32,541 bases of DNA, from positions 1 through 32,541 of the forward strand of contig JAIXWI010000025.1 in assembly GCA_027491355.1 (NCBI GenBank). The letters are read 5' to 3'. Of the stretch, positions 10,282 to 29,685 are shown one piece after another. Below the pieces are notes generated by a model, which was given only the letters and a program-made list of their open reading frames with translations, was not told where the DNA came from and did not search any database. A program made the position numbers and the translations under genes. The DNA comes from Bacteroidota bacterium (lineage in GTDB: Bacteria; Bacteroidota; Bacteroidia; UKL13-3). How positions within the stretch are numbered: position 1 is the stretch's first letter; each line of letters begins with the position of its first letter.

Positions 10282-10998
10282 ATGGAACATTTAAAAATTG
10301 CTAGCGACAACTATGTTGCTTTTACGTTCTTCATTGGAACGATGGCTATGATGGCAGCCTCTGTTTTCTTTTTCTTCGAATTAAGTACTACTTCGAGCAA
10401 ATGGAGAACTTCAGTTTTGGTATCTGGATTGATCACTTTCATTGCAGCAGTTCATTACTACTACATGAGAGGGTACAATTTAGCAACTGGTGATTCACCA
10501 ACCTTTTTCAGGTATGTAGATTGGATCTTAACTGTACCTTTGATGTGTGTTGAATTTTATTTAATCACCAAGAAAGCTGGCGCAAAAGTATCGTTGCTTT
10601 GGAAGCTCATTTTTGCATCTTTAGTGATGTTGATTACAGGTTATTTCGGTGAAACAATTGACCGTGGTAACAGTGTGATGTGGGGTGTGATTTCAGGTGC
10701 GGCTTATTTCTACATTGCGTATTTGGTTTGGTTTGGAGAAGTTGCAAATCTTTCACAAACTGCTGGTAAGCAAGTTGCAAAAGCAACTCGTGTGCTTGCA
10801 TGGTTTGTATTGGTAGGTTGGGCAATTTATCCATTAGGATACATTTTAGGAACTCCAGGTGGATTGTTTGGCATTCAGTTAGTAGCTGACCCTGCTGCTG
10901 CAGCTCATTCTATGGACATCGTTTACAACATTGCTGATGCAATTAATAAAATTGGTTTTGGTTTAGTAATTTATAGCCTTTCAAGAAGCGAAGATTAA
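10282..10998 (+). CDS. Proton-pumping rhodopsin (proteorhodopsin type)
   Basis: This seven-helix retinal protein pumps protons outward in light and so builds proton-motive force. Helix C carries D80 (counter-ion and acceptor), T84 and E91 (donor), the DTE motif of proton pumps. H58 pairs with D80, and K223 in helix G is the retinal Schiff-base lysine (INKIGFG). The colour-tuning position, eight after D80, is M88, typical of green-absorbing forms in Bacteroidota. By hand alignment the helix E site that is Phe in green proteorhodopsin is Gly135 (WGVIS), the small residue that opens the carotenoid-antenna window in xanthorhodopsin. The 238-residue length is normal. The retinal-synthesis fusion gene follows after a terminator. 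Confidence 0.96.
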   Translation: MEHLKIASDNYVAFTFFIGTMAMMAASVFFFFELSTTSSKWRTSVLVSGLITFIAAVHYYYMRGYNLATGDSPTFFRYVDWILTVPLMCVEFYLITKKAGAKVSLLWKLIFASLVMLITGYFGETIDRGNSVMWGVISGAAYFYIAYLVWFGEVANLSQTAGKQVAKATRVLAWFVLVGWAIYPLGYILGTPGGLFGIQLVADPAAAAHSMDIVYNIADAINKIGFGLVIYSLSRSED

Positions 10999-11019
10999 AA
11001 TTAAACAATTACAAATTTT

Positions 11020-11057
11020 AAAAGGGAGGTTGTTGCTAATGAACTACCTCCCTTTTT
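11020..11057 (+). terminator. Terminator between the rhodopsin gene and the crtY-blh fusion
   Basis: AAAAGGGAGGT pairs with ACCTCCCTTTT around a 15-base loop and is followed by TTATTT. It can end most rhodopsin transcripts, leaving reduced read-through or a separate promoter for the next gene. Confidence 0.85.
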
Positions 11058-11141
11058 ATTTCATTCAAAACTGAAACATAACCCCGCACTAGCTAAATAA
11101 AATAGTAGAATCAGTTCCACATTTACAATCTATACGTTAAA

Positions 11142-13124
11142 ATGAATCAATTTTTAAATACATATGATTATATTTTCTGTGGAACTGGAACAGCTGCTAT
11201 ATTGGTGCTTTTGGAGTTAGAAAGGAATCATTTACTTGATAACAAATCGGTATTACTCATAGATCCAGACTCGAAAGAAAAAAACGACAAAACATTTTGT
11301 TTTTGGGCAGCTGTCAATGAACCCATCGCAGTAAACTTAAACCAGCTCATTTCTCATTCTTGGGATGAAGTCATCATCTCAGAAAAAAAAGTAGAAAAAA
11401 TTTGGCCTTACAAGTACAATCATATTTCAAGTATAGCATTATACAAGCAGCTGCATCGGCTTAAGTTAAAATACAATTTTCATGTTCACTCATTCAATGT
11501 AGATACTATTTCAACAGATGAATCAGGTGTTTTTGTAACCGTCAACGAACTAAAAGTAAGGGCGGACAAGGTTTTCGATTCTAGAACCCCGTTGTTCAAA
11601 CAACCTTCAGAAGGAGAAGTTCATATTTCACAGAGTTTCATTGGTTGGGTGGTTGAAACTGAAACACCTATAGCCAATGCCTCCTCGTTCAGGTTCATGG
11701 ATTTTCAAATACCGCAACAGGGTTCAACCCAATTTGTGTATGTACTTCCATTTTCATCCAATAAAGCTTTGATTGAGGTGACAAGATTTGGTTCAGAGCT
11801 TATACCGGAAGCATCCGCCAATGAGTTGCTTCAAAATTACCTACAAGAACATTATGGAAATTATAAAATTTTAGAAATAGAAAGGGGTTGTATACCTATG
11901 ACTAATACAACCATCAATCATTCAAATTTGCCAGGTGTCATATTGTTGGGCGCCAGGAATTATCAGATCAAACCAAGCACTGGATATGCATTTAAAAATA
12001 TGTATTACCATGCACGTTCCGTTGTAGAGGCTATTCAAAACAATGCTTCAGTTTATACATTGAACAAAAATAAACATGATATCAATAAAAGTAGGTTTTC
12101 ATTTTATGATGATTTGTTACTAGATATCTTAAAAAACAAACCCAATGAAGGTAAACATGTTTTTACCTCATTATTAGAAAATATTGAAACCAGAAAGATT
12201 TTAGATTTCTTAGATGAAAAAACCAGCATAAAAGAGGAAATCAGTATTTTTAAGGTATTACCGATGAAACCTTTTCTTGTGAGTTTACTTTCTAAATGCA
12301 AGAACTATAATTGGTTTAGGCCATTCCTCATTGCTGTTTTAACATTTGTTTTACTCATGTTTAAAAACGATGAGCTTGCAAAAGCGCTGTTTTTTATAGG
12401 CTTGGTAACAGTAGGCATTCCACATGGTGCCCTAGATCATTTAATAGAAACAGGAAAACTTGAAACTAAAAAAACGCCATTGTTCATTTTAAAATATTTG
12501 TTTTTAACAGCCTCAGTGGCTTTGTTTTGGTATTATCAACCCCAATTAGCTCTTTTGTTTTTTTTAGTGTTTTCCGCCTGGCATTTTGGTCAAGCTGATG
12601 GCAACAGCTGGAACTTTGGAAGGGTGTTTTCAGCCTTGTGGGGATTGTTTGTATTGTTTTATTTGTTGTCAACACACCAAGAAGAAGCCAATGCCATCAT
12701 ACAAAATTTAGCCAAAATAAGTATTCCGTTCGCCTCACCATTCTGGATTATTTTACCTTGGTTCACATTGGCAATTTTCAAAAGAAATGTTGCTTTTGCA
12801 ATTACCATATGCTGGCTCATGCTCTCATGCAAACTACCTCTCATTGTTTCATTTGGTTTATATTTTATAGGTCAACACAGTTTTTCAGGATGGAACCATT
12901 TACGTAAGCATCTTCAATTAAGTCATGTCAGTATGTGGTTGCATGCTTTGCCATTTCACATTGGTGCCTGGGTTATTTTCATGGTTTTTATTTACCTGAA
13001 TTCAACAGCCAATTTATTCTCGGATTTAAGATTTTGGCCTTTGTTTTTTGTTTTCATTGCTGCAATCAGTTTCCCGCATACCATTTACATGAACAAGATT
13101 TATTTTAAAAGAAAACAACTTTAA
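11142..13124 (+). CDS. Lycopene cyclase–beta-carotene 15,15'-dioxygenase fusion (CrtY-Blh)
   Basis: One 660-residue frame holds two enzymes. Residues 1 to about 380 are a CrtY-type lycopene beta-cyclase: dinucleotide-binding GTGTAA at 14-19, TFCFWA at 51-56 and the conserved KPSTGYAFKNM at 277-287. Residues about 390-660 form a multi-helix membrane Brp/Blh dioxygenase with GIPHGALDH (H428, H433), WHFGQAD (H481), GQHSFSGWNH (H579, H586) and FPHTIYM (H646), which include the iron-binding histidines. The first half makes beta-carotene from lycopene and the second cleaves it to retinal for the adjacent rhodopsin. No stop or frameshift separates the halves; they are joined by a roughly 90-residue polar segment. 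Usually crtY and blh are separate genes. Confidence 0.93.
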   Translation: MNQFLNTYDYIFCGTGTAAILVLLELERNHLLDNKSVLLIDPDSKEKNDKTFCFWAAVNEPIAVNLNQLISHSWDEVIISEKKVEKIWPYKYNHISSIALYKQLHRLKLKYNFHVHSFNVDTISTDESGVFVTVNELKVRADKVFDSRTPLFKQPSEGEVHISQSFIGWVVETETPIANASSFRFMDFQIPQQGSTQFVYVLPFSSNKALIEVTRFGSELIPEASANELLQNYLQEHYGNYKILEIERGCIPMTNTTINHSNLPGVILLGARNYQIKPSTGYAFKNMYYHARSVVEAIQNNASVYTLNKNKHDINKSRFSFYDDLLLDILKNKPNEGKHVFTSLLENIETRKILDFLDEKTSIKEEISIFKVLPMKPFLVSLLSKCKNYNWFRPFLIAVLTFVLLMFKNDELAKALFFIGLVTVGIPHGALDHLIETGKLETKKTPLFILKYLFLTASVALFWYYQPQLALLFFLVFSAWHFGQADGNSWNFGRVFSALWGLFVLFYLLSTHQEEANAIIQNLAKISIPFASPFWIILPWFTLAIFKRNVAFAITICWLMLSCKLPLIVSFGLYFIGQHSFSGWNHLRKHLQLSHVSMWLHALPFHIGAWVIFMVFIYLNSTANLFSDLRFWPLFFVFIAAISFPHTIYMNKIYFKRKQL

Positions 13125-18116: not shown

Positions 18117-18374
18117 TTATGTGATTGTGTTATAGATTTCAAATCCTAATTTATGCAAGGCAGAACATTTTTCATATTCCTCTCTTAGCTCAAAATATTG
18201 AACCAAAACATCGATAGCATCAACAATTTCTTTAGGTTTATTAAGAATTAACTTACTCCTAAAAGAGCCAATCATGACATTATAAAGTTTATTATAGAAC
18301 TGATCATTGGTACAAGTTTGTCTGCAATGAATAAGCTCCAATAATAACAATGTATTTTCACTCAATTCTACCAT
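18117..18374 (-). CDS. Small helical protein, last gene of the AAA+ operon
   Basis: The 85 residues are nearly all helix-forming, with LLLLELIHCRQTC and EIVDAIDVLVQYFELREEYEKCSALHKLG as the main segments and three Cys. No family recognised. It starts 7 bases after the preceding gene's stop, so it is read as the last gene of the operon. A structural or accessory role is a guess from its place. Confidence 0.55.
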   Translation of the reverse strand: MVELSENTLLLLELIHCRQTCTNDQFYNKLYNVMIGSFRSKLILNKPKEIVDAIDVLVQYFELREEYEKCSALHKLGFEIYNTIT

Positions 18375-18381
18375 ATCATTT

Positions 18382-18759
18382 TTATATATTTTTTAATAAA
18401 TCTTCAGGAAAGTTTTTAAGCTTATAATTCACCCCAAGAGATTGTTCAATCAATTTTTTTCCATGTAAAATAGGCACAAGAATATCTGTTTTTTTTAGAT
18501 AGCCTTTTGGTATTTCATAAATTGATTCACGATTATAGATATTAATATATAAGATTTCTTTTTCACCGTTAGCTTTTAAGATTTCATAGCAGTCAATAGG
18601 TTTAGATTTTCCAACAGAAGTTGTATGTATACGCTGAAAAAAAAATGGCTTCCCATCATCAGTTACTAGTGAATTTAAAAATTCAATAGTATCCTGAATG
18701 CTTTTTACTTTAATTGGATTTAGGGCTGTTTTAGCGTAGTTCTGTTCAAAATTTTCCAT
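18382..18759 (-). CDS. Hypothetical protein, AAA+ operon
   Basis: A soluble 125-residue protein with no signal. A helix (IQDTIEFLNSLV) is followed by strands FFFQRIHTTSV, IDCYEILKANGEKEILYINIY and a helix-turn end (YKLKNFPEDLLKNI). The end resembles the FPEGFKNFN stretch near the end of the upstream 130-residue protein. No family recognised. Ten bases separate it from the gene before and seven from the gene after, so it is probably co-translated. Confidence 0.6.
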   Translation of the reverse strand: MENFEQNYAKTALNPIKVKSIQDTIEFLNSLVTDDGKPFFFQRIHTTSVGKSKPIDCYEILKANGEKEILYINIYNRESIYEIPKGYLKKTDILVPILHGKKLIEQSLGVNYKLKNFPEDLLKNI

Positions 18760-18769
18760 AACATATTTT

Positions 18770-19162
18770 TTATTCTGGAATCCCAGTGATAATTGCTAGA
18801 CTGTTAAAGTTTTTAAATCCTTCAGGGAAGTCCTGAGCATTAAACTTTTTCTGAATACTCAAATCCGAAAATGCATAGAGCGAATGAGGATCCACCACTT
18901 TGTCGAAATAAGGTATGCTCACAGCCCAGTGACTGTAACCACCTACTTCAGCATGGTAAGTTACCATTTTTGTCATATCCAACATACTTGGTGATTTAAC
19001 CCTGTACCTTACGTTGTAATTTTCTTCCCCTGCATGAATAACTAAAAATCCAAGCAGCTTATTATTAACGATGATAAAAGGATGATCGGTACTTTTAACA
19101 GATACCATTAAAATTCCATCATCACAAGTGATCAGGTGAAAAGTGTTATAAACTGTTAGCAT
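18770..19162 (-). CDS. Hypothetical protein, AAA+ operon
   Basis: A 130-residue cytoplasmic protein rich in beta-strands (FHLITCDDGILMVSVKS, PFIIVNNKLLGFLVIHAG, NYNVRYRVKSPS) with MVTYHAEVGGYSHWAVSIPYFDKVVDP in the middle. No family recognised. It lies 63 bases after the AAA+ gene, the widest gap in the operon, so a separate internal promoter is possible. Confidence 0.6.
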   Translation of the reverse strand: MLTVYNTFHLITCDDGILMVSVKSTDHPFIIVNNKLLGFLVIHAGEENYNVRYRVKSPSMLDMTKMVTYHAEVGGYSHWAVSIPYFDKVVDPHSLYAFSDLSIQKKFNAQDFPEGFKNFNSLAIITGIPE

Positions 19163-19225
19163 ATATTTATATATTTTGTATTACAATATTAGTCTATCGA
19201 TTTGCGCTGTATACACAAGGATAAA

Positions 19226-20884
19226 TTATTTAAACCCAATTTTTCTATTTGTACTTCGGAAACCTACTTCTGACACTACATATTCCATGAATAAAGATTC
19301 ATTCTGAGATGTATTGCTGAATAATAATTGATCTGCCATTAATTTTCTTTTGATGTTTTGAATTTGACCACCGCTTAATTCATAACATGCAGCAATTTCC
19401 ATTAATTTATCTGAATTTATATCAGGAAAATGGCTCTCAAGAATCTTTAACCGTGTACTATTATCTGGCAATTCAAACTTCTGTTTATAAAGCAATCTTC
19501 TATCAAAGGCTCCATCGATGTTATTAATAAGATTCGTAGTGGCAATAAAAATACCTTTCATGTCCTCTAATTCTTGAAGTAAAATATTTTGCAATGAATT
19601 ATACATTTGATCAACAGAGTGTTGCACGGTGGTTCTGAGTCCCAATATTGCATCTGCCTCATTAAATAACAAGATTGGTGTTAGTCTGTTATATTTAAGG
19701 GCATCCCCATATTCTCTAAAAACTTTTTTAAGGTTTTTTTCCGATTCACCAACCCACATATCTTTGATACTGGAAATATCTACCTGGTAAATACTTCTTT
19801 GATGTTTTAACGCCAGTTGCTTAACAAGCTCTGTTTTTCCAGTACCAGGCAAACCATGAAATAGCATCGTGAGACAATCTTTCATGCCATTTTCCAAAAA
19901 CTTGTTCATTAGATGTCTATAATTTTCCTCTGACAAAAGTTGTTCGATTTTTTCAACACATTGACCCATACTACTATTAAAATAGAGATTATTCTCTTGT
20001 AGATCAGATGGCTCAATTAGTTTACAATATCTAGTAATCTTTTTTTTAAGGCTTGAATTTAATCTGATTTCCCCGAGTAGATCATTAGTTTTATCTCCCA
20101 ATATCACCGCTGAAAAATCGACAAAATTAGGTCTTTTAAATTCTATAAATCCATCTGTAACCATGGCGCTTAAACCACTAGATATTCGTTGTTTGAATCC
20201 TAATGAATAAGCAGGGTCTTGAGTAAAATGGTCAATAATATTATTAAGATCAAATTCCTCTCTTCCGTAAACAATTTCTGAAGCCAACCAAACAAGTATA
20301 ACTTTTTCTAAATCCATCAATTTTACATTCATCCGTAAATTTGAGATAAAAGCAAAGTTCTCATAATTCTCTAGTTCGAAAATTATTGCTTCAGCTAAAT
20401 CCTCAACCTCACAATCTCCAATATAATTAGATATAGTTTGTCTTAATTGTATTAATGCTTCAGACAATGTATCTGGTATTTGAATAGTTAGTTTAGCTTT
20501 ATCATTATAAGTTACAGCATCCAAAACCAATTTCGATATTTCAAATTCATCTGTCTTAAAAGAATGAAATTTCCTTTTTGATTGAATAAGCCATCCTTTT
20601 CGCTTTAGAATTTTTATATTCTCATAACTATGAATAATATCGAGCGAGCTAAAGCCCATATGCTTCATCAATTTCCTTATGGAGGTTGTTTCCCCCATTA
20701 ATTGTTCGCAAATCAACACAGAAATCAAAGTTGAAAAACTAATATCTAGATCCAAAAAATTTGAAACCAATGATATTTCCTCTTCCAAATCGCTTAAAAG
20801 ATCCGGTTGACGTAATAATTTTTCTCTAGACTCAAATATTTTTGTCATGCTTTCTAGAAGCAAATTGTTTGTTTTTATTTTCAT
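19226..20884 (-). CDS. AAA+ ATPase with long N-terminal domain
   Basis: The C-terminal part is a Cdc48/FtsH-like AAA module. Walker A HGLPGTGKTEL is at about residues 343-353 (K350), followed by the pore-like SIKDMWVGESEKNL. Walker B is ILLFNEAD (404-411), with Asn where most have Asp. Arg finger candidates are R462/R463 in GAFDRRLLY. About 330 N-terminal residues are helical, without a recognised family, and may bind the client or partner. The ATG at 20884 gives 552 residues; a TTG at 20914 is possible. It sits second in a five-gene operon of unknown proteins, suggesting it remodels or loads one of them. Confidence 0.85.
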   Translation of the reverse strand: MKIKTNNLLLESMTKIFESREKLLRQPDLLSDLEEEISLVSNFLDLDISFSTLISVLICEQLMGETTSIRKLMKHMGFSSLDIIHSYENIKILKRKGWLIQSKRKFHSFKTDEFEISKLVLDAVTYNDKAKLTIQIPDTLSEALIQLRQTISNYIGDCEVEDLAEAIIFELENYENFAFISNLRMNVKLMDLEKVILVWLASEIVYGREEFDLNNIIDHFTQDPAYSLGFKQRISSGLSAMVTDGFIEFKRPNFVDFSAVILGDKTNDLLGEIRLNSSLKKKITRYCKLIEPSDLQENNLYFNSSMGQCVEKIEQLLSEENYRHLMNKFLENGMKDCLTMLFHGLPGTGKTELVKQLALKHQRSIYQVDISSIKDMWVGESEKNLKKVFREYGDALKYNRLTPILLFNEADAILGLRTTVQHSVDQMYNSLQNILLQELEDMKGIFIATTNLINNIDGAFDRRLLYKQKFELPDNSTRLKILESHFPDINSDKLMEIAACYELSGGQIQNIKRKLMADQLLFSNTSQNESLFMEYVVSEVGFRSTNRKIGFK

Positions 20885-20926
20885 AATTGGTGTTTTAAAA
20901 TATAAATAATTCAAAATTGAGCATGT

Positions 20927-21520
20927 TTACAAGGATTGAATATTTTTGACTCGCCAATCAATGTAATCATTGATTGACCTATCAGGTACTAAGGAGTCAA
21001 AGTCGTTTCTGTATGGTCGTACTGATGCCACACCATCACCACGGGTAATAAATGGACGTTGACTAGAATACCGTGAAAGGTCAAACTTGAATAATTTAAG
21101 CGCTTTATTAGGTATATCATTGTTTGTACATACATAGTATGTAGGTTTTGAGAAGCCAATTGCATCTTCAGCCATATTAGGATCTTGAAACCACGTAACA
21201 TTAGCTAAATGAGTATCGATACGCCAAAAACTGTACATAGAAAACTCATAACCCTTCATAGGGTAATTTCCATCAAAAAAAATATCCCAAATATCCATAA
21301 AATATGGATATGTGTACTCGAATTTGTAAAGATTCGAGTGTGCAAAAACAGCATACTTATTTGGGCATATTAATCCATGAGCAGCAATTGATAAATTGCG
21401 CTCATGAAAATCATAAGTGATGTGCCACAAGTAACGACTTGTTTTGATTGGTGTTTGGTCTAAACGAGCAAGAAAGTTTTCGGTTAGTGGACTTACTTTT
21501 GAACTAAATGATGATTTCAT
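20927..21520 (-). CDS. Possible ADP-ribosyltransferase-fold protein, first gene of the AAA+ operon
   Basis: The 197-residue soluble protein begins with SRYLWHITYDFHERNLSIAAHGL, like the xHxT … I…GL opening of ART-fold proteins (DarT, RNA 2'-phosphotransferase). FAHSN, WRIDTHLANVTWFQDPNM and TYYVCTNNDIPNKALKLFKFD are placed as in small ART-like proteins where a retrieved strand is followed by a P-rich loop. The family is not certain and no catalytic Glu can be named. Start is fixed by AAAGGAG six bases before the ATG, a strong ribosome site that is rare in Bacteroidota. Next gene begins 13 bases on. Confidence 0.5.
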   Translation of the reverse strand: MKSSFSSKVSPLTENFLARLDQTPIKTSRYLWHITYDFHERNLSIAAHGLICPNKYAVFAHSNLYKFEYTYPYFMDIWDIFFDGNYPMKGYEFSMYSFWRIDTHLANVTWFQDPNMAEDAIGFSKPTYYVCTNNDIPNKALKLFKFDLSRYSSQRPFITRGDGVASVRPYRNDFDSLVPDRSINDYIDWRVKNIQSL

Positions 21521-21644: not shown

Positions 21645-21668
21645 TTTGCGTTCTATTAGCAACGCAAA
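21645..21668. promoter_or_regulatory. 8-8-8 palindrome, candidate operator of the AAA+ operon
   Basis: TTTGCGTT and AACGCAAA are perfect inverted 8-mers around an 8-base spacer, 125 bases upstream of the first gene. Nearby TAGTTTTT on the minus strand (about 16 bases from a TTG in the palindrome) could be a promoter -7 box, so a dimeric repressor could block it. The surrounding 260-base gap has no open frame. Confidence 0.55.
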
Positions 21669-21957: not shown

Positions 21958-22719
21958 TTATTCCCAATTACTGAAAATTAATTGATCGACAGACTCGTTA
22001 TTATTATAATTTCTATTGTAATTAAAAGAATTACCTAGTTGATTTTGTTTCAAAAATGCTTTAGCAGTTTCATTTATTTGATTCAAATAAAAAAAGCCAT
22101 TTTTTATCTCTAAATTTTTCAGTATTTGAAGCAAATTAATAAATATAAATTGATCCATATCAGATCTAATATTAATGGTGCTGTTTAATAAAATTTGATT
22201 TTGAACACAGAAATTATAAAACCATTCATTCTCACAATTGATTAGTAAAAGTATGATTTCTTCATTTTTATAAACTTGAATGTTACTTGATTGACATTCG
22301 TTATAAATTATAGATTTTTTTGTGTTAAAATCTAATGAATCGAAATAGTCTTCTTCAGCATCACCAATACCCATTTCCATCAGTGAAGAACTCAAAGGAT
22401 CTGACAATCGTTTCTGCTGAATATAGTGCATATTTAAGCGAGATTGTTGATTTGGATCGTTATTGTCAAATTTAAGAACCGATGGGGATTCCTCTAATTC
22501 GATATTTTCAATAAATTCGAATCCATGAACCCTTGTTAGATTTATAATTTCTTCGCTACTTGTTTTTAATATTTCATTATCTGTAAATACGTATATTTTC
22601 GGCAAAGGAGTTTTAGAACTACGTTCAAAAAGTTTTGTAGCTCCAAAGTCAAATCCAGAGCAAGGATACCAACACTTTACCTGGTTACCAATGAGGTATT
22701 TTAATAACTGTTTATTCAT
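21958..22719 (-). CDS. Hypothetical protein sharing a domain with the 591-residue protein upstream
   Basis: The 253-residue protein begins with a CWYPCSGFDFGATKLFER motif; similar text opens uncharacterised Bacteroidota proteins. Its middle, INLTRVHGFEFIENIELEE and KKSIIYNECQSSNIQVYKN … WFYNFCVQNQILL, lines up with IKNLTNDHGYELQEETILR and KRYIIGIDEEINATVLKKN … FLEWCKANELKL in the 24100-25875 protein. Function unknown. It lies 29 bases after the CAP gene, in the same transcription unit. Confidence 0.6.
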   Translation of the reverse strand: MNKQLLKYLIGNQVKCWYPCSGFDFGATKLFERSSKTPLPKIYVFTDNEILKTSSEEIINLTRVHGFEFIENIELEESPSVLKFDNNDPNQQSRLNMHYIQQKRLSDPLSSSLMEMGIGDAEEDYFDSLDFNTKKSIIYNECQSSNIQVYKNEEIILLLINCENEWFYNFCVQNQILLNSTINIRSDMDQFIFINLLQILKNLEIKNGFFYLNQINETAKAFLKQNQLGNSFNYNRNYNNNESVDQLIFSNWE

Positions 22720-22748: not shown

Positions 22749-23387
22749 TTATTTACAAATCAACATTGTTGCTTTCTGGATATATAAGTTTTGTTTCTTT
22801 TTAAATCTAGAGCCAATATAAAAACCAAGATATTTTGCATCAGGCAAAAGCATGGCAGCGTTATGACCTGGTGATTTTTGCCACATTTTAAATACAGACT
22901 CTACTGACTCGGCATTAATTCTTTGAAATTGTATAGTTGGATCATTACCAACTTGAGCATTCGATATAGCGCAATTTTCATAGATGTTTGGGTGTTTTTC
23001 AGCCCAGCTCTGATCGTATTTTCGAACGCGATCGATAGGCTGATAATATACGTTACCGTCTATATTTAAAGAGTTTTCAATATGAGAAATGGTATCACGA
23101 TTTAACATCCAATTGGTGTGTAATCTACACGCAGAGTCCATTACATCTATTAATTTTAAAGTTGTTAATTGATTTTGAGCTCTATATCCATTGATTAACC
23201 TAAGAAAAATTGAGTCACACTTTTGTTCAGATAAATCAATATTGATTGGATGTTTTTTCAGATAATCCTGAACGTACATATTGATTACATCATCATAAAT
23301 TTGTTGAGAAAGATCCTCTGATTTTTTGTTTTGAGCGTTGAGCTGACAAACCGCCATCAACATCAACATTAATAGCTTCATTTTCAT
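22749..23387 (-). CDS. Secreted CAP/SCP-domain protein
   Basis: A signal peptide (MKMKLLMLMLMAVCQLNAQ) precedes a CAP (SCP/PR1) domain: LINGYRAQNQLTTLKLIDVMDSACRLHTNWM early, SHIENS in the middle and SVFKMWQKSPGHNAAMLLPDAKYLGFYIG at the end. The HTNW and SPGHNA histidines are at the conserved metal/substrate cavity places. CAP proteins are exported and have diverse roles including protease-like or sterol binding activities in other organisms. First gene of a two-gene unit behind element P2. Confidence 0.85.
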   Translation of the reverse strand: MKMKLLMLMLMAVCQLNAQNKKSEDLSQQIYDDVINMYVQDYLKKHPINIDLSEQKCDSIFLRLINGYRAQNQLTTLKLIDVMDSACRLHTNWMLNRDTISHIENSLNIDGNVYYQPIDRVRKYDQSWAEKHPNIYENCAISNAQVGNDPTIQFQRINAESVESVFKMWQKSPGHNAAMLLPDAKYLGFYIGSRFKKKQNLYIQKATMLICK

Positions 23388-23469: not shown

Positions 23470-24069
23470 TTAGAGCCAATTAAACCACGTTTCTTGATTA
23501 ATGTGAGGGATCATTTTATTTTCACAAATGCGCATGGTATGTCCAGTTCCTCCATCTTTGGGATTATTTAAATCATCATAAAAAATGGCAAAGGTTGCTG
23601 GAATTAATGTTTTAGTACCCAAAACCTTGATAGCATCTCGAATAATATACGCTGCCTTTAAGGAATTTTTATCTCTTAACCCATGAAGATACCGGTCAAC
23701 CAATTGATTTGTTTTACTATCTTTTTTGGATTGATAAATTATTTCATGTTCAGATGCTATACATAGCTCATCCAATGAAATTGATTCAAGACCCTCATTA
23801 TATTTCTTTCTATGATTTTTAAAAGGCTTTATTAACTGAATGCGAGAACTGCAAAATGATGTAACCCCTTTTGTAAATAACTCATCTGCACCAGGAGCGT
23901 TGCCGCTTCTAAAATGGATATTTTTAGATTGAGAGGCTAACAAATAGCCCAGTTTTACAAGAAAATCTTGGTCTTCAATTTTTACGTTTCTTTTACCTTC
24001 AAGTAAAACAACTGAATTATCAAAGTCATATTTTTCAATAAATTCTATTAAAGTCATTTTAGTGTTCAA
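23470..24069 (-). CDS. SLOG/DprA-like Rossmann-fold protein
   Basis: The 199-residue protein has VVLLEGKRNVK and IHFRSGNAPGADELFTKGV, the latter like the (S/G)G(A)xxGAD nucleotide-binding loop of SLOG, DprA and lysine-decarboxylase-like domains. The C-terminal NPKDGGTGHTMRICE is a second motif seen in such hypothetical proteins. SLOG domains bind nucleotide ligands and often act in anti-phage or toxin systems. The gene lies 30 bases after the 591-residue protein and is read with it. Confidence 0.65.
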   Translation of the reverse strand: MNTKMTLIEFIEKYDFDNSVVLLEGKRNVKIEDQDFLVKLGYLLASQSKNIHFRSGNAPGADELFTKGVTSFCSSRIQLIKPFKNHRKKYNEGLESISLDELCIASEHEIIYQSKKDSKTNQLVDRYLHGLRDKNSLKAAYIIRDAIKVLGTKTLIPATFAIFYDDLNNPKDGGTGHTMRICENKMIPHINQETWFNWL

Positions 24070-26786: not shown

Positions 26787-27779
26787 TTATTTTTTATACA
26801 AGCTAATGACATCAGTTGCAGTTTTTTTTATGTATTCCAAATAATTATTGGGCGAGACCACCTCAACTCCTGATCCATGACTTAAAATTGCCATATTTAG
26901 CTCAGGAGACTCATACACTTTGATACTCACAATTACATAATCCTCTGTTTGTTCAATAATTTTTTGGCTATGATGAAGAGGTTTTGATAGAATATAATGT
27001 GCGTTGAACTTATTAAATTTAAGCACAAGCTCTAGAGGTTCTTCATTTAACTTTCTGGTGATGCCAAAACTGTGCTTGAAATAGGTTTTCGAGTTGAAGC
27101 CCTTTGTTGTGATAAATGCTTCTTTTGATTTCTTAATCCCTTTTATACGATCCATGCCATAGCAGTAAATAAGTTCATCAGTCTTACTGGCATGATTTCT
27201 GGCAACCAGATAAAATCTGTTTCTATACTCCTTAATCATGTATGGCGATACAATATGTTCCTTTGCTTCTTTACCATATACCACGTATGTGATTTTCAAA
27301 GGTTGCATTTCAAGAATGGCGTCATACAGAACATCAAACCAATCTAATCCATTTTTCACATCGTTCTTTTCAAATTCAATAACCCTATTAGCTTCATTAC
27401 TTTCATGAGTATTTGCTTCTGTTATTAATCTTTGAATTAGATTCTTATAAGATTTTGCAAATTTTGTGTCCTTTAATATATCAAGTACAACTAGACTTGC
27501 CTTGAGCGACATTTCTTCACCATCATCCAAGGCTAAGCCTGTAAGTGAAAATTTTTTTGAATAATAATAATGTTTATCAAAGGCATTCCAATCGATTGGT
27601 GCATCAAATTCTGCTTTGAGCGCCGCAATATCTCTACTAACACAATCTACCGATACATAACGTTCGCATTTTTCGGTTAACACTTCCGAAAGTTTTTGCC
27701 TGTCGAAATGCTTAAAGGAATTGTTTAAACATTGGTCAATAACTCTGTAACGAAAATAGGCATTCTTATTTTTTGGCAT
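26787..27779 (-). CDS. WYL-domain transcriptional regulator
   Basis: An N-terminal winged helix (FRYRVIDQCLNNSFKHFDRQKLSEVLTEKC… VSRDIAALK) is followed by the WYL domain, with PLKITYVVYGKEAKEHIVSPYMIKEYRNRFYLVARNH and IYCYGMDRIKGIK (residues about 150-220), then a C-terminal WCX-like part. WYL regulators bind ligands, often nucleotide or nucleic acid derived, and frequently control phage defence. It lies between the DUF2779 gene and the UDG-like gene with gaps of about 25 bases, so it probably autoregulates the operon. Confidence 0.9.
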   Translation of the reverse strand: MPKNKNAYFRYRVIDQCLNNSFKHFDRQKLSEVLTEKCERYVSVDCVSRDIAALKAEFDAPIDWNAFDKHYYYSKKFSLTGLALDDGEEMSLKASLVVLDILKDTKFAKSYKNLIQRLITEANTHESNEANRVIEFEKNDVKNGLDWFDVLYDAILEMQPLKITYVVYGKEAKEHIVSPYMIKEYRNRFYLVARNHASKTDELIYCYGMDRIKGIKKSKEAFITTKGFNSKTYFKHSFGITRKLNEEPLELVLKFNKFNAHYILSKPLHHSQKIIEQTEDYVIVSIKVYESPELNMAILSHGSGVEVVSPNNYLEYIKKTATDVISLYKK

Positions 27780-27804: not shown

Positions 27805-29685
27805 TTACTTTATTCCCCAATGATGTGCAATAATTACCATTGCCATAGTGTCTAACTTACAGTATTGTAATAACTGATATCTCAATTCATTTCTTTTTTC
27901 TTGGCTAAGTGTATCATCAAACCTAATTCTATGATAAGCTCTCATGGCTGCGGTTCCACCACTTACAACTTCATCATCCCAGTCGGCTTCACTTAGTCCA
28001 CTAGTTAATGTATCATAAGGATCTAAAATCCCACCCAAAAATTCTTCTGGAACATAATCTTTAAAATGTTCTATTTTGTGTAAATAGGGGTGGTGACTCC
28101 ATACAGCTGGCAACACTTTTTTAATAGAAGTTTTCCCTTTCATGTATGGGTGGAAGTAATGCTCTTGCGTCATCTTATTCATATCAACCAATCTGCCATC
28201 CTTATCCCCATCACTGGTAATATCAAACAGCCAATTTCTCAATGGTTCATCTTTTATATCATAAATCTCCATTTGTTTGAGAATGGTTCGTAACACCGTA
28301 TTCTCATGTGTTGCCCACATCAAAGGTGTTCCTGAAGTTCCAATTTGCATCATTAATGAACGGGCAAATTCAAAGTTTGGAAACTCGCTCGGATTAGGGA
28401 ATTTCTCACCTGTATGAATCCATTCTGAATGCACTGGTGTGGTTCCTGGTTTATGTATCGTATGACAACTCCATTGAAAAGCAATCAACTCATAAGGTCG
28501 CATTCCCTTATGAAATGGCAATGCCCCAGTGTATGTTTCAAAATCTATAAAGTGCAGCGGGTATTTTAAGTTATTAGCAACCGATTTCAATTCTTGCGAA
28601 ATCCACTCGGTATTATTGCGGGTATTTTCAATTTGTATTAATTGGCGGGTTCCTCTTGATCCTAACTCTCCTTTGCTGTTTTTTAATCGTTCAGGATCTA
28701 TATCAAACAAATTTGTTTTGCCTTCAGCAATAAGTTCATCGAAATAATATCCTTTGGTGTAATGACCAATGGATCCACCATAGTGCAAATCAAAAATATT
28801 GGGTTCGGTGTAGGCTAAATCTCCCCAACATTCTTTATATCCATTTTGTTGTTTATCAATAGTATTAAACTCACATGCTTTACATCCTTTAGTGATTTTG
28901 TAATCATTGGCCGAAATGCCTTCGTTTAATATTCGGAGAAAATTACTTGCCCTTTGGTTGATGTCATTCTGCATTTCTTCCACAGCCTCTGTTACATCCT
29001 GATACTCTAGTATACCTTCCTTCGCCAATTGTGCTATATATTCTTCTTTATTGTGGGCAGATTCAAATTTAAAAACAACTTCAGGCTTGTTAAAGGCAGG
29101 TTTTTGTTGTGCAGGTAATTCTTCTAACTCTTGGTCGTTCTTTTTATCCTGTTTTTTTACACTAAACCAACCTGCCAAGTCTTCAATAGCTGTGCGCTTT
29201 GCCTTATCTGGCATCAACAACGAACACTTTATCTTGCAGCCAGGGAAAGCCTCCTTAAGTACCGAGTATTGATAAGCAACATCTTCAATGTACTTTTTGA
29301 GTTTTGCTTTATCTTGTTGTTCATCCGTATTGTGAGATTTAGCTTTCACCTCTATCAAGTGAAATGAGTTACCTTGTTTAACCAAAATATCAACTCGAAC
29401 CAATTTTTGTCCAGATACAATGGCTGGTTCAAACAAAACCACATTTTCTTGTTGAAAATGTATGTTGGTTTGCGCAATGCAATCTTGTGTATTCCCATCT
29501 ATTTCAATGCCATCAGGAAAAAGCATGGTTGCCATTTTACCTACAATATAACCGCCCTGAGCCAACATCTCCATGTATTCGTTGGTATCATTAGCCGTGG
29601 GGTAATTAGCCTTTTTATACACCAGCTTTTTAGGGCAGGTTGATGCTAGCTGGAAGTCGGATTTGGAGAGTTGCATATAATACAT
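27805..29685 (-). CDS. DUF2779 nuclease-like protein (Cas4-like N-terminus, DnaQ-like C-terminus)
   Basis: The 626-residue protein starts MQLSKSDFQLASTCPKKL like Cas4/RecB-family nucleases. D99 and E112-V-K114 form the PD-(D/E)XK core, and Cys17 with C268, C271 and C286 could bind an iron-sulfur cluster as in Cas4/AddB. The C-terminal half is the DUF2779 region: DFETYTG (D381, E383), WATHENTVL and YCKLDTMAMV resemble DEDD 3'-5' exonuclease motifs. The protein thus joins two nuclease folds. The ATG at 29676 is an alternative start. WYL and UDG-like genes follow at 25-base spacing. Confidence 0.85.
   Translation of the reverse strand: MYYMQLSKSDFQLASTCPKKLVYKKANYPTANDTNEYMEMLAQGGYIVGKMATMLFPDGIEIDGNTQDCIAQTNIHFQQENVVLFEPAIVSGQKLVRVDILVKQGNSFHLIEVKAKSHNTDEQQDKAKLKKYIEDVAYQYSVLKEAFPGCKIKCSLLMPDKAKRTAIEDLAGWFSVKKQDKKNDQELEELPAQQKPAFNKPEVVFKFESAHNKEEYIAQLAKEGILEYQDVTEAVEEMQNDINQRASNFLRILNEGISANDYKITKGCKACEFNTIDKQQNGYKECWGDLAYTEPNIFDLHYGGSIGHYTKGYYFDELIAEGKTNLFDIDPERLKNSKGELGSRGTRQLIQIENTRNNTEWISQELKSVANNLKYPLHFIDFETYTGALPFHKGMRPYELIAFQWSCHTIHKPGTTPVHSEWIHTGEKFPNPSEFPNFEFARSLMMQIGTSGTPLMWATHENTVLRTILKQMEIYDIKDEPLRNWLFDITSDGDKDGRLVDMNKMTQEHYFHPYMKGKTSIKKVLPAVWSHHPYLHKIEHFKDYVPEEFLGGILDPYDTLTSGLSEADWDDEVVSGGTAAMRAYHRIRFDDTLSQEKRNELRYQLLQYCKLDTMAMVIIAHHWGIK

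What the first reader, a model, noticed from the sequence alone, without database searches (positions are those of the whole stretch)
18117..21520. Unrecognised five-gene AAA+ operon with a possible ADP-ribosyltransferase-fold partner
Five tightly spaced minus-strand genes encode a protein with ART-like opening (WHIT … AAHGL), an AAA+ ATPase with a large unknown N-terminal domain, two strand-rich unknown proteins with a shared FPE-type ending and a small helical protein. An ATPase with a putative effector and small unknown subunits is the layout of many defence or toxin systems, though none that I can name matches. It lies in accessory DNA near a defence-like operon. This is the best candidate for an undescribed system in the window.
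Basis: inference. Interest (0 to 1): 0.62.

Follow-up and report, generated by a model that had tools for sequence, protein, structure and literature searches.

The report
Conserved ART-like and AAA+ accessory operon
A rare six-gene bacterial operon, unnamed in the libraries searched, pairs a probable ADP-ribosyltransferase-fold protein with an AAA+ ATPase; related genes recur beside ADP-ribose-removing enzymes and WYL regulators, suggesting an undescribed NAD+-based, perhaps anti-phage, system.

Summary
The operon is real. With ten relatives aligned, a profile comparison places the first protein's opening on the ART domain of both DarT and KptA, far above controls and shuffles. So an ART fold is likely; a DarT-type catalytic glutamate is not conserved, so activity is uncertain. 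The ATPase is a classic AAA+ with a probable winged-helix N-terminus. Its relatives sit by WYL regulators (6 of 12 loci, 0.08 expected). The ART-like gene lies within 7 kb of such an ATPase in 5 of 10 loci (0.04-0.17 expected), from three ATPase lineages. In G629 it is directly followed by a phosphatase and an ADP-ribosylglycohydrolase; the same cassette abuts the window genome's second such ATPase. This matches ADP-ribosylglycohydrolase/WYL conflict systems predicted in 2022, but adds the ATPase, the ART-like family and orphan proteins. Defence function is inferred, not shown. Genes 3 and 4 are not homologous.

The parts
20927..21520 (-). ART-like protein, 197 aa; family-wide conserved H33, G49, V58-[FY]-A-H61, D76, Y96, W99-R-I-D-T103, W110, D113, P137, A140
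   Evidence: ten relatives aligned (A9); hhalign to DarT and KptA above controls
19226..20884 (-). AAA+ ATPase, 552 aa; N-terminal ~300 aa mostly helical, read as two winged-helix units; AAA module about 340-470 with Walker A GLPGTGKT, Walker B variant LLFNEAD, ATTN, DRR
   Evidence: PF00004 E 1.1e-21; relatives in 16 loci; winged-helix reading is inference from sequence and low-confidence helices
18770..19162 (-). gene 3, 130 aa, orphan, strand-rich; directly follows the ART-like gene in G657:C19
   Evidence: relatives in G467 and G657
18382..18759 (-). gene 4, 125 aa, orphan
   Evidence: relative in G467 only
18117..18374 (-). gene 5, 85 aa, orphan, helical by the look of the sequence
   Evidence: relative in G467 only
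   Evidence: same position in G467
21645..21668 (.). perfect inverted repeat TTTGCGTT-8-AACGCAAA about 125 bp upstream of the operon; candidate operator
   Evidence: only copy in the window with up to 3 mismatches, but 36 of 100 shuffles also hold such a match; no exact copy in other genomes' loci
26787..27779 (-). WYL-domain regulator of the same island (linked, not in the operon)
   Evidence: PF13280 3.8e-11; WYL-AAA linkage test
27805..29685 (-). DUF2779 predicted exonuclease of the same island (linked, not in the operon)
   Evidence: PF11074 9.8e-24; recurs in 5 loci

Best explanation
It is an accessory conflict operon of Bacteroidota. The first protein is an ADP-ribosyltransferase-fold enzyme, probably an effector that uses NAD+ to modify a macromolecule or make a soluble ADP-ribose product. 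The AAA+ ATPase with a winged-helix N-terminus senses the trigger (likely foreign nucleic acid or a protein complex) and by ATP-driven remodelling releases or activates the effector; proteins 3-5 are the effector's inhibitor and adaptors. A WYL regulator of the island senses the resulting nucleotide and controls expression, and in sister islands an ADP-ribosylglycohydrolase and a phosphatase reverse the reaction. Shown: conserved gene set, AAA+ identity, statistical linkage of ART-like, AAA+ and WYL genes, adjacency to an ADP-ribosylglycohydrolase cassette in one relative. Supported: ART fold. Inferred: enzyme activity, inhibitor role of gene 3, AAA+ as sensor, WYL control, defence.
For: Six-gene synteny in G467. 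Profile match of ten ART-like sequences to DarT (25.6) and KptA (24.0, at the start of its catalytic domain), eight control proteins at most 12.9, 0 of 150 shuffles each. ART-like within 7 kb of AAA+ in 5 of 10 loci, P about 3e-10 to 3e-7, from at least three AAA+ lineages. AAA+ by WYL in 6 of 12 loci, P 2e-11. G629: ART-like, phosphatase, ADP-ribosylglycohydrolase (PF03747 1e-73), AAA+ and DUF2779 in about 9 kb; G684: AAA+, ART-like, WYL, ADP-ribosylglycohydrolase within about 17 kb; own genome contig C2: phosphatase, ADP-ribosylglycohydrolase, AAA+, WYL. Gene 3 directly follows ART-like without AAA+ in G657:C19.
Against: No acid at the position of DarT's catalytic Glu (Y/F/S there); the profile match covers only the opening 25-33 residues. 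Both AlphaFold models are poor and structure searches gave nothing significant. Five of ten ART-like loci show no AAA+ nearby (two of them cut by contig ends), and most AAA+ loci have no ART-like gene, so shared island cargo is possible. No ADP-ribosylglycohydrolase was found in the window itself. No phage, plasmid or viral-contig copies.
Confidence: 0.42

Rival explanations
1. Hotspot cargo: the ART-like gene, AAA+, WYL, DUF2779 and ADP-ribosylglycohydrolase genes are separate modules collected in the same accessory hotspots and do not act as one machine.
For: Five ART-like loci lack a nearby AAA+; AAA+ relatives have varied neighbours (reverse transcriptase, DUF2779, none).
Against: Six genes with conserved order and spacing in G467; ART-like and AAA+ together with three AAA+ lineages.
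Confidence: 0.25
2. Toxin-immunity or toxin-antitoxin pair: protein 1 is the toxin and gene 3 its neutraliser; the AAA+ and the rest are add-ons.
For: In G657:C19 gene 3 directly follows the ART-like gene with no AAA+ between or after it; both are small and of similar divergence.
Against: Gene 3 was found in only three loci; seven of ten ART-like loci show none nearby, though some are cut by contig ends; no fold or homology for gene 3.
Confidence: 0.2
3. Repair or counter-ADP-ribosylation system: protein 1 is an inactive ART-fold reader of ADP-ribosylated targets and the AAA+ unfolds them, in line with the ADP-ribosylglycohydrolase-centred systems of Iyer et al. 2022.
For: No conserved third catalytic acid at the DarT position; the WYL, phosphatase and ADP-ribosylglycohydrolase setting of relatives matches that paper (PMC9503650).
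Against: The window lacks an ADP-ribosylglycohydrolase; conserved H33 and WRIDT suggest an active site; those systems were defined as lacking an ART.
Confidence: 0.13

Closest known systems
ADP-ribosylglycohydrolase (ARG)-centred conflict systems, Iyer et al. 2022 (PMC9503650, section 3.8)
   Same: WYL regulator, DSP/rhodanese-type phosphatase and ADP-ribosylglycohydrolase recur around this AAA+ family (own genome C2, G629, G684).
   Different: No ARG in the window; those systems were described as lacking a coupled ART, and that section describes no AAA+ of this type and none of the orphan proteins 3-6.
DarT (DarTG toxin-antitoxin, PF14487)
   Same: Opening motif [YW]H-I-T...GL at the same place in the domain.
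   Different: No Pfam hit, no DarT VPxYF motif, no catalytic Glu, no macrodomain DarG partner.
KptA/Tpt1 RNA 2'-phosphotransferase
   Same: FLYHGT...GL...YV of KptA aligns with YLWHIT...GL...AV here.
   Different: No N-terminal domain like KptA's; KptA's second His (after YV) falls on F/Y59 here by extension of the alignment; the rest cannot be aligned.
IetAS anti-phage system and eCIS ATPases
   Same: Same classic AAA+ family; IetA model 74 bits; remote relatives lie beside eCIS_core proteins.
   Different: IetA cut-off is 510 bits; no subtilase-like partner; similarity to the eCIS-side ATPases is confined to the AAA module.

Membership tests
ART fold superfamily | His on first strand followed by helix, GL turn and second strand | tested here: met
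   H33 in all nine sequences that span it; hhalign to DarT and KptA beyond controls and shuffles
ART fold superfamily | overall split-sheet fold | tested here: inconclusive
   AlphaFold pLDDT 39.9; Foldseek best E 2.1, VIA no Z of 2 or more
DarT | sequence family PF14487 | tested here: not met
   no PF14487 hit at E 10 for any of the ten members
DarT | catalytic glutamate before the last core strand | tested here: not met
   Y/F/S at the place 7 residues before I-P; this part of the alignment is by eye
ARG-centred system (Iyer 2022) | ADP-ribosylglycohydrolase gene in the locus | tested here: not met
   none among the island genes scanned in the window; present in G629, own contig C2 and G684 (by BLAST)
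ARG-centred system (Iyer 2022) | WYL or Nudix regulator | tested here: met
   WYL 26787-27779 in the island; linkage test
IetAS | IetA model above curated cut-off | tested here: not met
   74.3 bits against 510
IetAS | subtilase IetS partner | tested here: not met
   no protease family hit in the operon
Classic AAA ATPases | Walker A, Walker B, sensor 1, Arg finger | tested here: met
   PF00004 E 1.1e-21; motifs invariant in three operon relatives, with Asn for the first Asp of Walker B
Anti-phage defence system | protection against phage | not testable with these tools
   needs phage challenge

The most novel reading that the evidence does not exclude
A new NAD+-dependent immune system in which a previously unrecognised ART-fold family, lacking the usual catalytic glutamate, is gated by a winged-helix AAA+ ATPase and feeds a nucleotide signal to a WYL regulator, with ADP-ribosylglycohydrolase and phosphatase as the off switch in sister systems.
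Probability: 0.2. Interest if true: 0.78.

Novelty: new variant of a known kind. Interest (0 to 1): 0.5.

Why it matters
Conflict systems built on NAD+ and ADP-ribose usually couple an enzyme to a known sensor. Here a divergent ART-like family and an AAA+ family come together repeatedly around WYL regulators and ADP-ribosylglycohydrolases. If the ATPase is the sensor, it would give the ARG/WYL systems predicted in 2022 a missing trigger and effector, and it makes a simple two-gene test possible (ART-like plus gene 3).

Tried and rejected
Homology of genes 3 and 4 through the FPE ending: rejected. A weak match of gene 3 to ~485-aa proteins (SDR-like oxidoreductases by eye; E 7e-5 to 7e-4 in single genomes): treated as chance or too remote, not followed. 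ART read-through into AAA+: both are in frame in the window but not in G467, so rejected; the read-through of AAA+ into gene 3 was used only to fold both in one job. Structure prediction of ART-like and of AAA+ with gene 3: too poor to use; Foldseek top hits included ART-fold toxins but at E above 2, so not counted. First hhalign of five sequences against DarT was not significant, 7 of 100 shuffles; it became so with seven and ten sequences. IetAS membership: rejected. Searches of viral contigs, phages and plasmids found no ART-like relatives. The upstream inverted repeat is not shared exactly by relatives.

Full report
What is there. The five ORFs are as described, on the minus strand, with gaps of 42, 63, 10 and 7 bp. 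Only the AAA+ protein has a database name (PF00004); the others have no match worth trusting in Pfam, NCBIfam, PADLOC or PHROGs. Gene 3 is absent from the three same-genus genomes tested, and the island's GC (0.31) is lower than that of the housekeeping end of the window (0.38), so the locus is accessory.

Conservation of the set. Searches for gene 3 and gene 4 found G467. Its 4.6 kb contig holds ART-like, AAA+, genes 3, 4, 5 and a sixth gene in the same order; gaps are 44/64/12/8/85 against 42/63/10/7/94 here, identities 53, 66, 52, 48, 48 and 45%, and dN is 0.27-0.46 with dS 1.7-2.5 where it could be computed. In G657 there are two ART-like genes: one directly followed by gene 3 without AAA+ (C19, at a contig end), and one about 1.6 kb upstream of an AAA+ that is itself directly followed by a WYL regulator (C16 = L051). 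A profile scan of about 85,000 species genomes found just four ART-like loci in three MAGs; whole-genome searches with better profiles added five remote members, 28-41% identical: G546, G589, G592, G629 and G684.

Is protein 1 an ART? In ten aligned members H33, the G49 turn, V58-[FY]-A-[HN], D76, Y96, WRIDT, W110, D113, P137 and A140 are invariant or nearly so. Compared profile to profile with four DarT proteins from related genomes and with E. coli KptA, the family aligns with the start of the ART domain in both (scores 25.6 and 24.0); eight control K-12 proteins score at most 12.9 and none of 150 column shuffles reaches either score. KptA residues 98-128 (FLYHGT...GL...YV) match residues 26-58 here. 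This supports an ART-type opening, not the full fold. At the place of DarT's glutamate the family has Y, F or S, so the chemistry may be closer to the H-H-h clade (RNA repair and soluble ADP-ribose products, as described in PMC9503650) or may be lost. AlphaFold with five sequences failed (pLDDT 39.9).

The AAA+. It is a classic AAA+ (Cdc48/NSF type by PDB search) whose first 300 residues are mostly helical in a low-confidence model; I read two winged-helix units from the sequence, an inference. Close relatives (E below 1e-20) occur in about a quarter of the related genomes with varied neighbours: WYL regulators, DUF2779 nucleases (presumed 3'-5' exonucleases, PMC3985635), a reverse transcriptase in G406 (PF00078). 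WYL genes are rare (23 in 12 genomes), yet 6 of 12 AAA+ loci have one within 7 kb against 0.08 expected, P about 2e-11.

The link between the two. ART-like genes lie within 7 kb of such an AAA+ in 5 of 10 loci; 0.04 to 0.17 expected for one to four AAA+ per genome. G629's ART-like gene is 6.5 kb from its AAA+; G684's is 1.35 kb away on the other strand. The five AAA+ proteins come from three lineages: window, G467 and G657 form a clade (98/97), G684 and G629 are apart. So the pairing was made or kept more than once. The tests were made after the pattern was seen, and island hotspots inflate such linkage.

ADP-ribose context. In G629 the ART-like gene is followed by a DSP-type phosphatase (83 bp gap) and an ADP-ribosylglycohydrolase (56 bp gap), with AAA+ and DUF2779 within about 9 kb. 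The same phosphatase-glycohydrolase pair (48% and 42% identical) abuts the second AAA+ of the window's own genome (contig C2, L024), next to a WYL gene. In G684, AAA+, ART-like, WYL and ADP-ribosylglycohydrolase share about 17 kb. The regulator-like gene beside the G629 AAA+ has BLAST kinship to a WYL protein but no Pfam WYL hit. This matches the conflict systems that Iyer et al. 2022 predicted (ADP-ribosylglycohydrolase, WYL or Nudix regulator, R-P phosphatase), which they define by the absence of a coupled ART. The text of that section describes no AAA+ of this kind.

Mechanism. Shown: gene set, AAA+ motifs, linkages. Supported: ART opening. Inferred: NAD+ chemistry; gene 3 as inhibitor, from its place right after ART-like in G657:C19; AAA+ as sensor; WYL control; defence. 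I put 0.42 on this chain as a whole, about 0.7 on the ART fold alone and 0.95 on the operon being a conserved unit.

Regulation. A perfect 8-bp inverted repeat (21645-21668) lies about 125 bp upstream of the operon; it is the only copy in the window but is not shared exactly by relatives and looser matches arise by chance, so it is only a candidate operator.

Noticed in passing
G000 contig C2 (L024 8701-13450): Second locus of the window's genome: phosphatase, ADP-ribosylglycohydrolase, AAA+ relative, and a WYL regulator; a close fit to the ARG-centred systems of Iyer et al. 2022, with an added AAA+.
   Followed up: partly
L030 7311-10033 (G406): A reverse transcriptase (PF00078) ends 53 bp before an AAA+ relative on the same strand; could be a retron-like unit with this AAA+ as partner.
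   Followed up: no
L034 and L036 (G439, G429): The remotest AAA+ relatives lie beside proteins with the eCIS core domain (PF13699 confirmed in L034; by BLAST similarity in L036).
   Followed up: partly
window 21958-22719 and L027 8429-9019: Two unnamed proteins share a YPCSGFDF motif; one lies just upstream of this operon, the other abuts an AAA+ relative in G421. BLAST at 1e-4 did not join them.
   Followed up: no
window 22749-23387; L050 2798-3847, 6028-6516, 6739-7344: Secreted CAP-domain-like proteins recur near ART-like genes (Pfam CAP 1.4e-8 in the window; the L050 ones by eye).
   Followed up: no
window 23470-24069: DprA-like (SLOG-type) protein, PHROG 768 at 1.4e-13, in the same island; SLOG domains bind NAD-derived nucleotides in other systems.
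   Followed up: no
window 10282-13124: A rhodopsin-like gene followed by a fused carotenoid-cyclase/Blh-like gene; ordinary retinal production by the look of the sequence.
   Followed up: no
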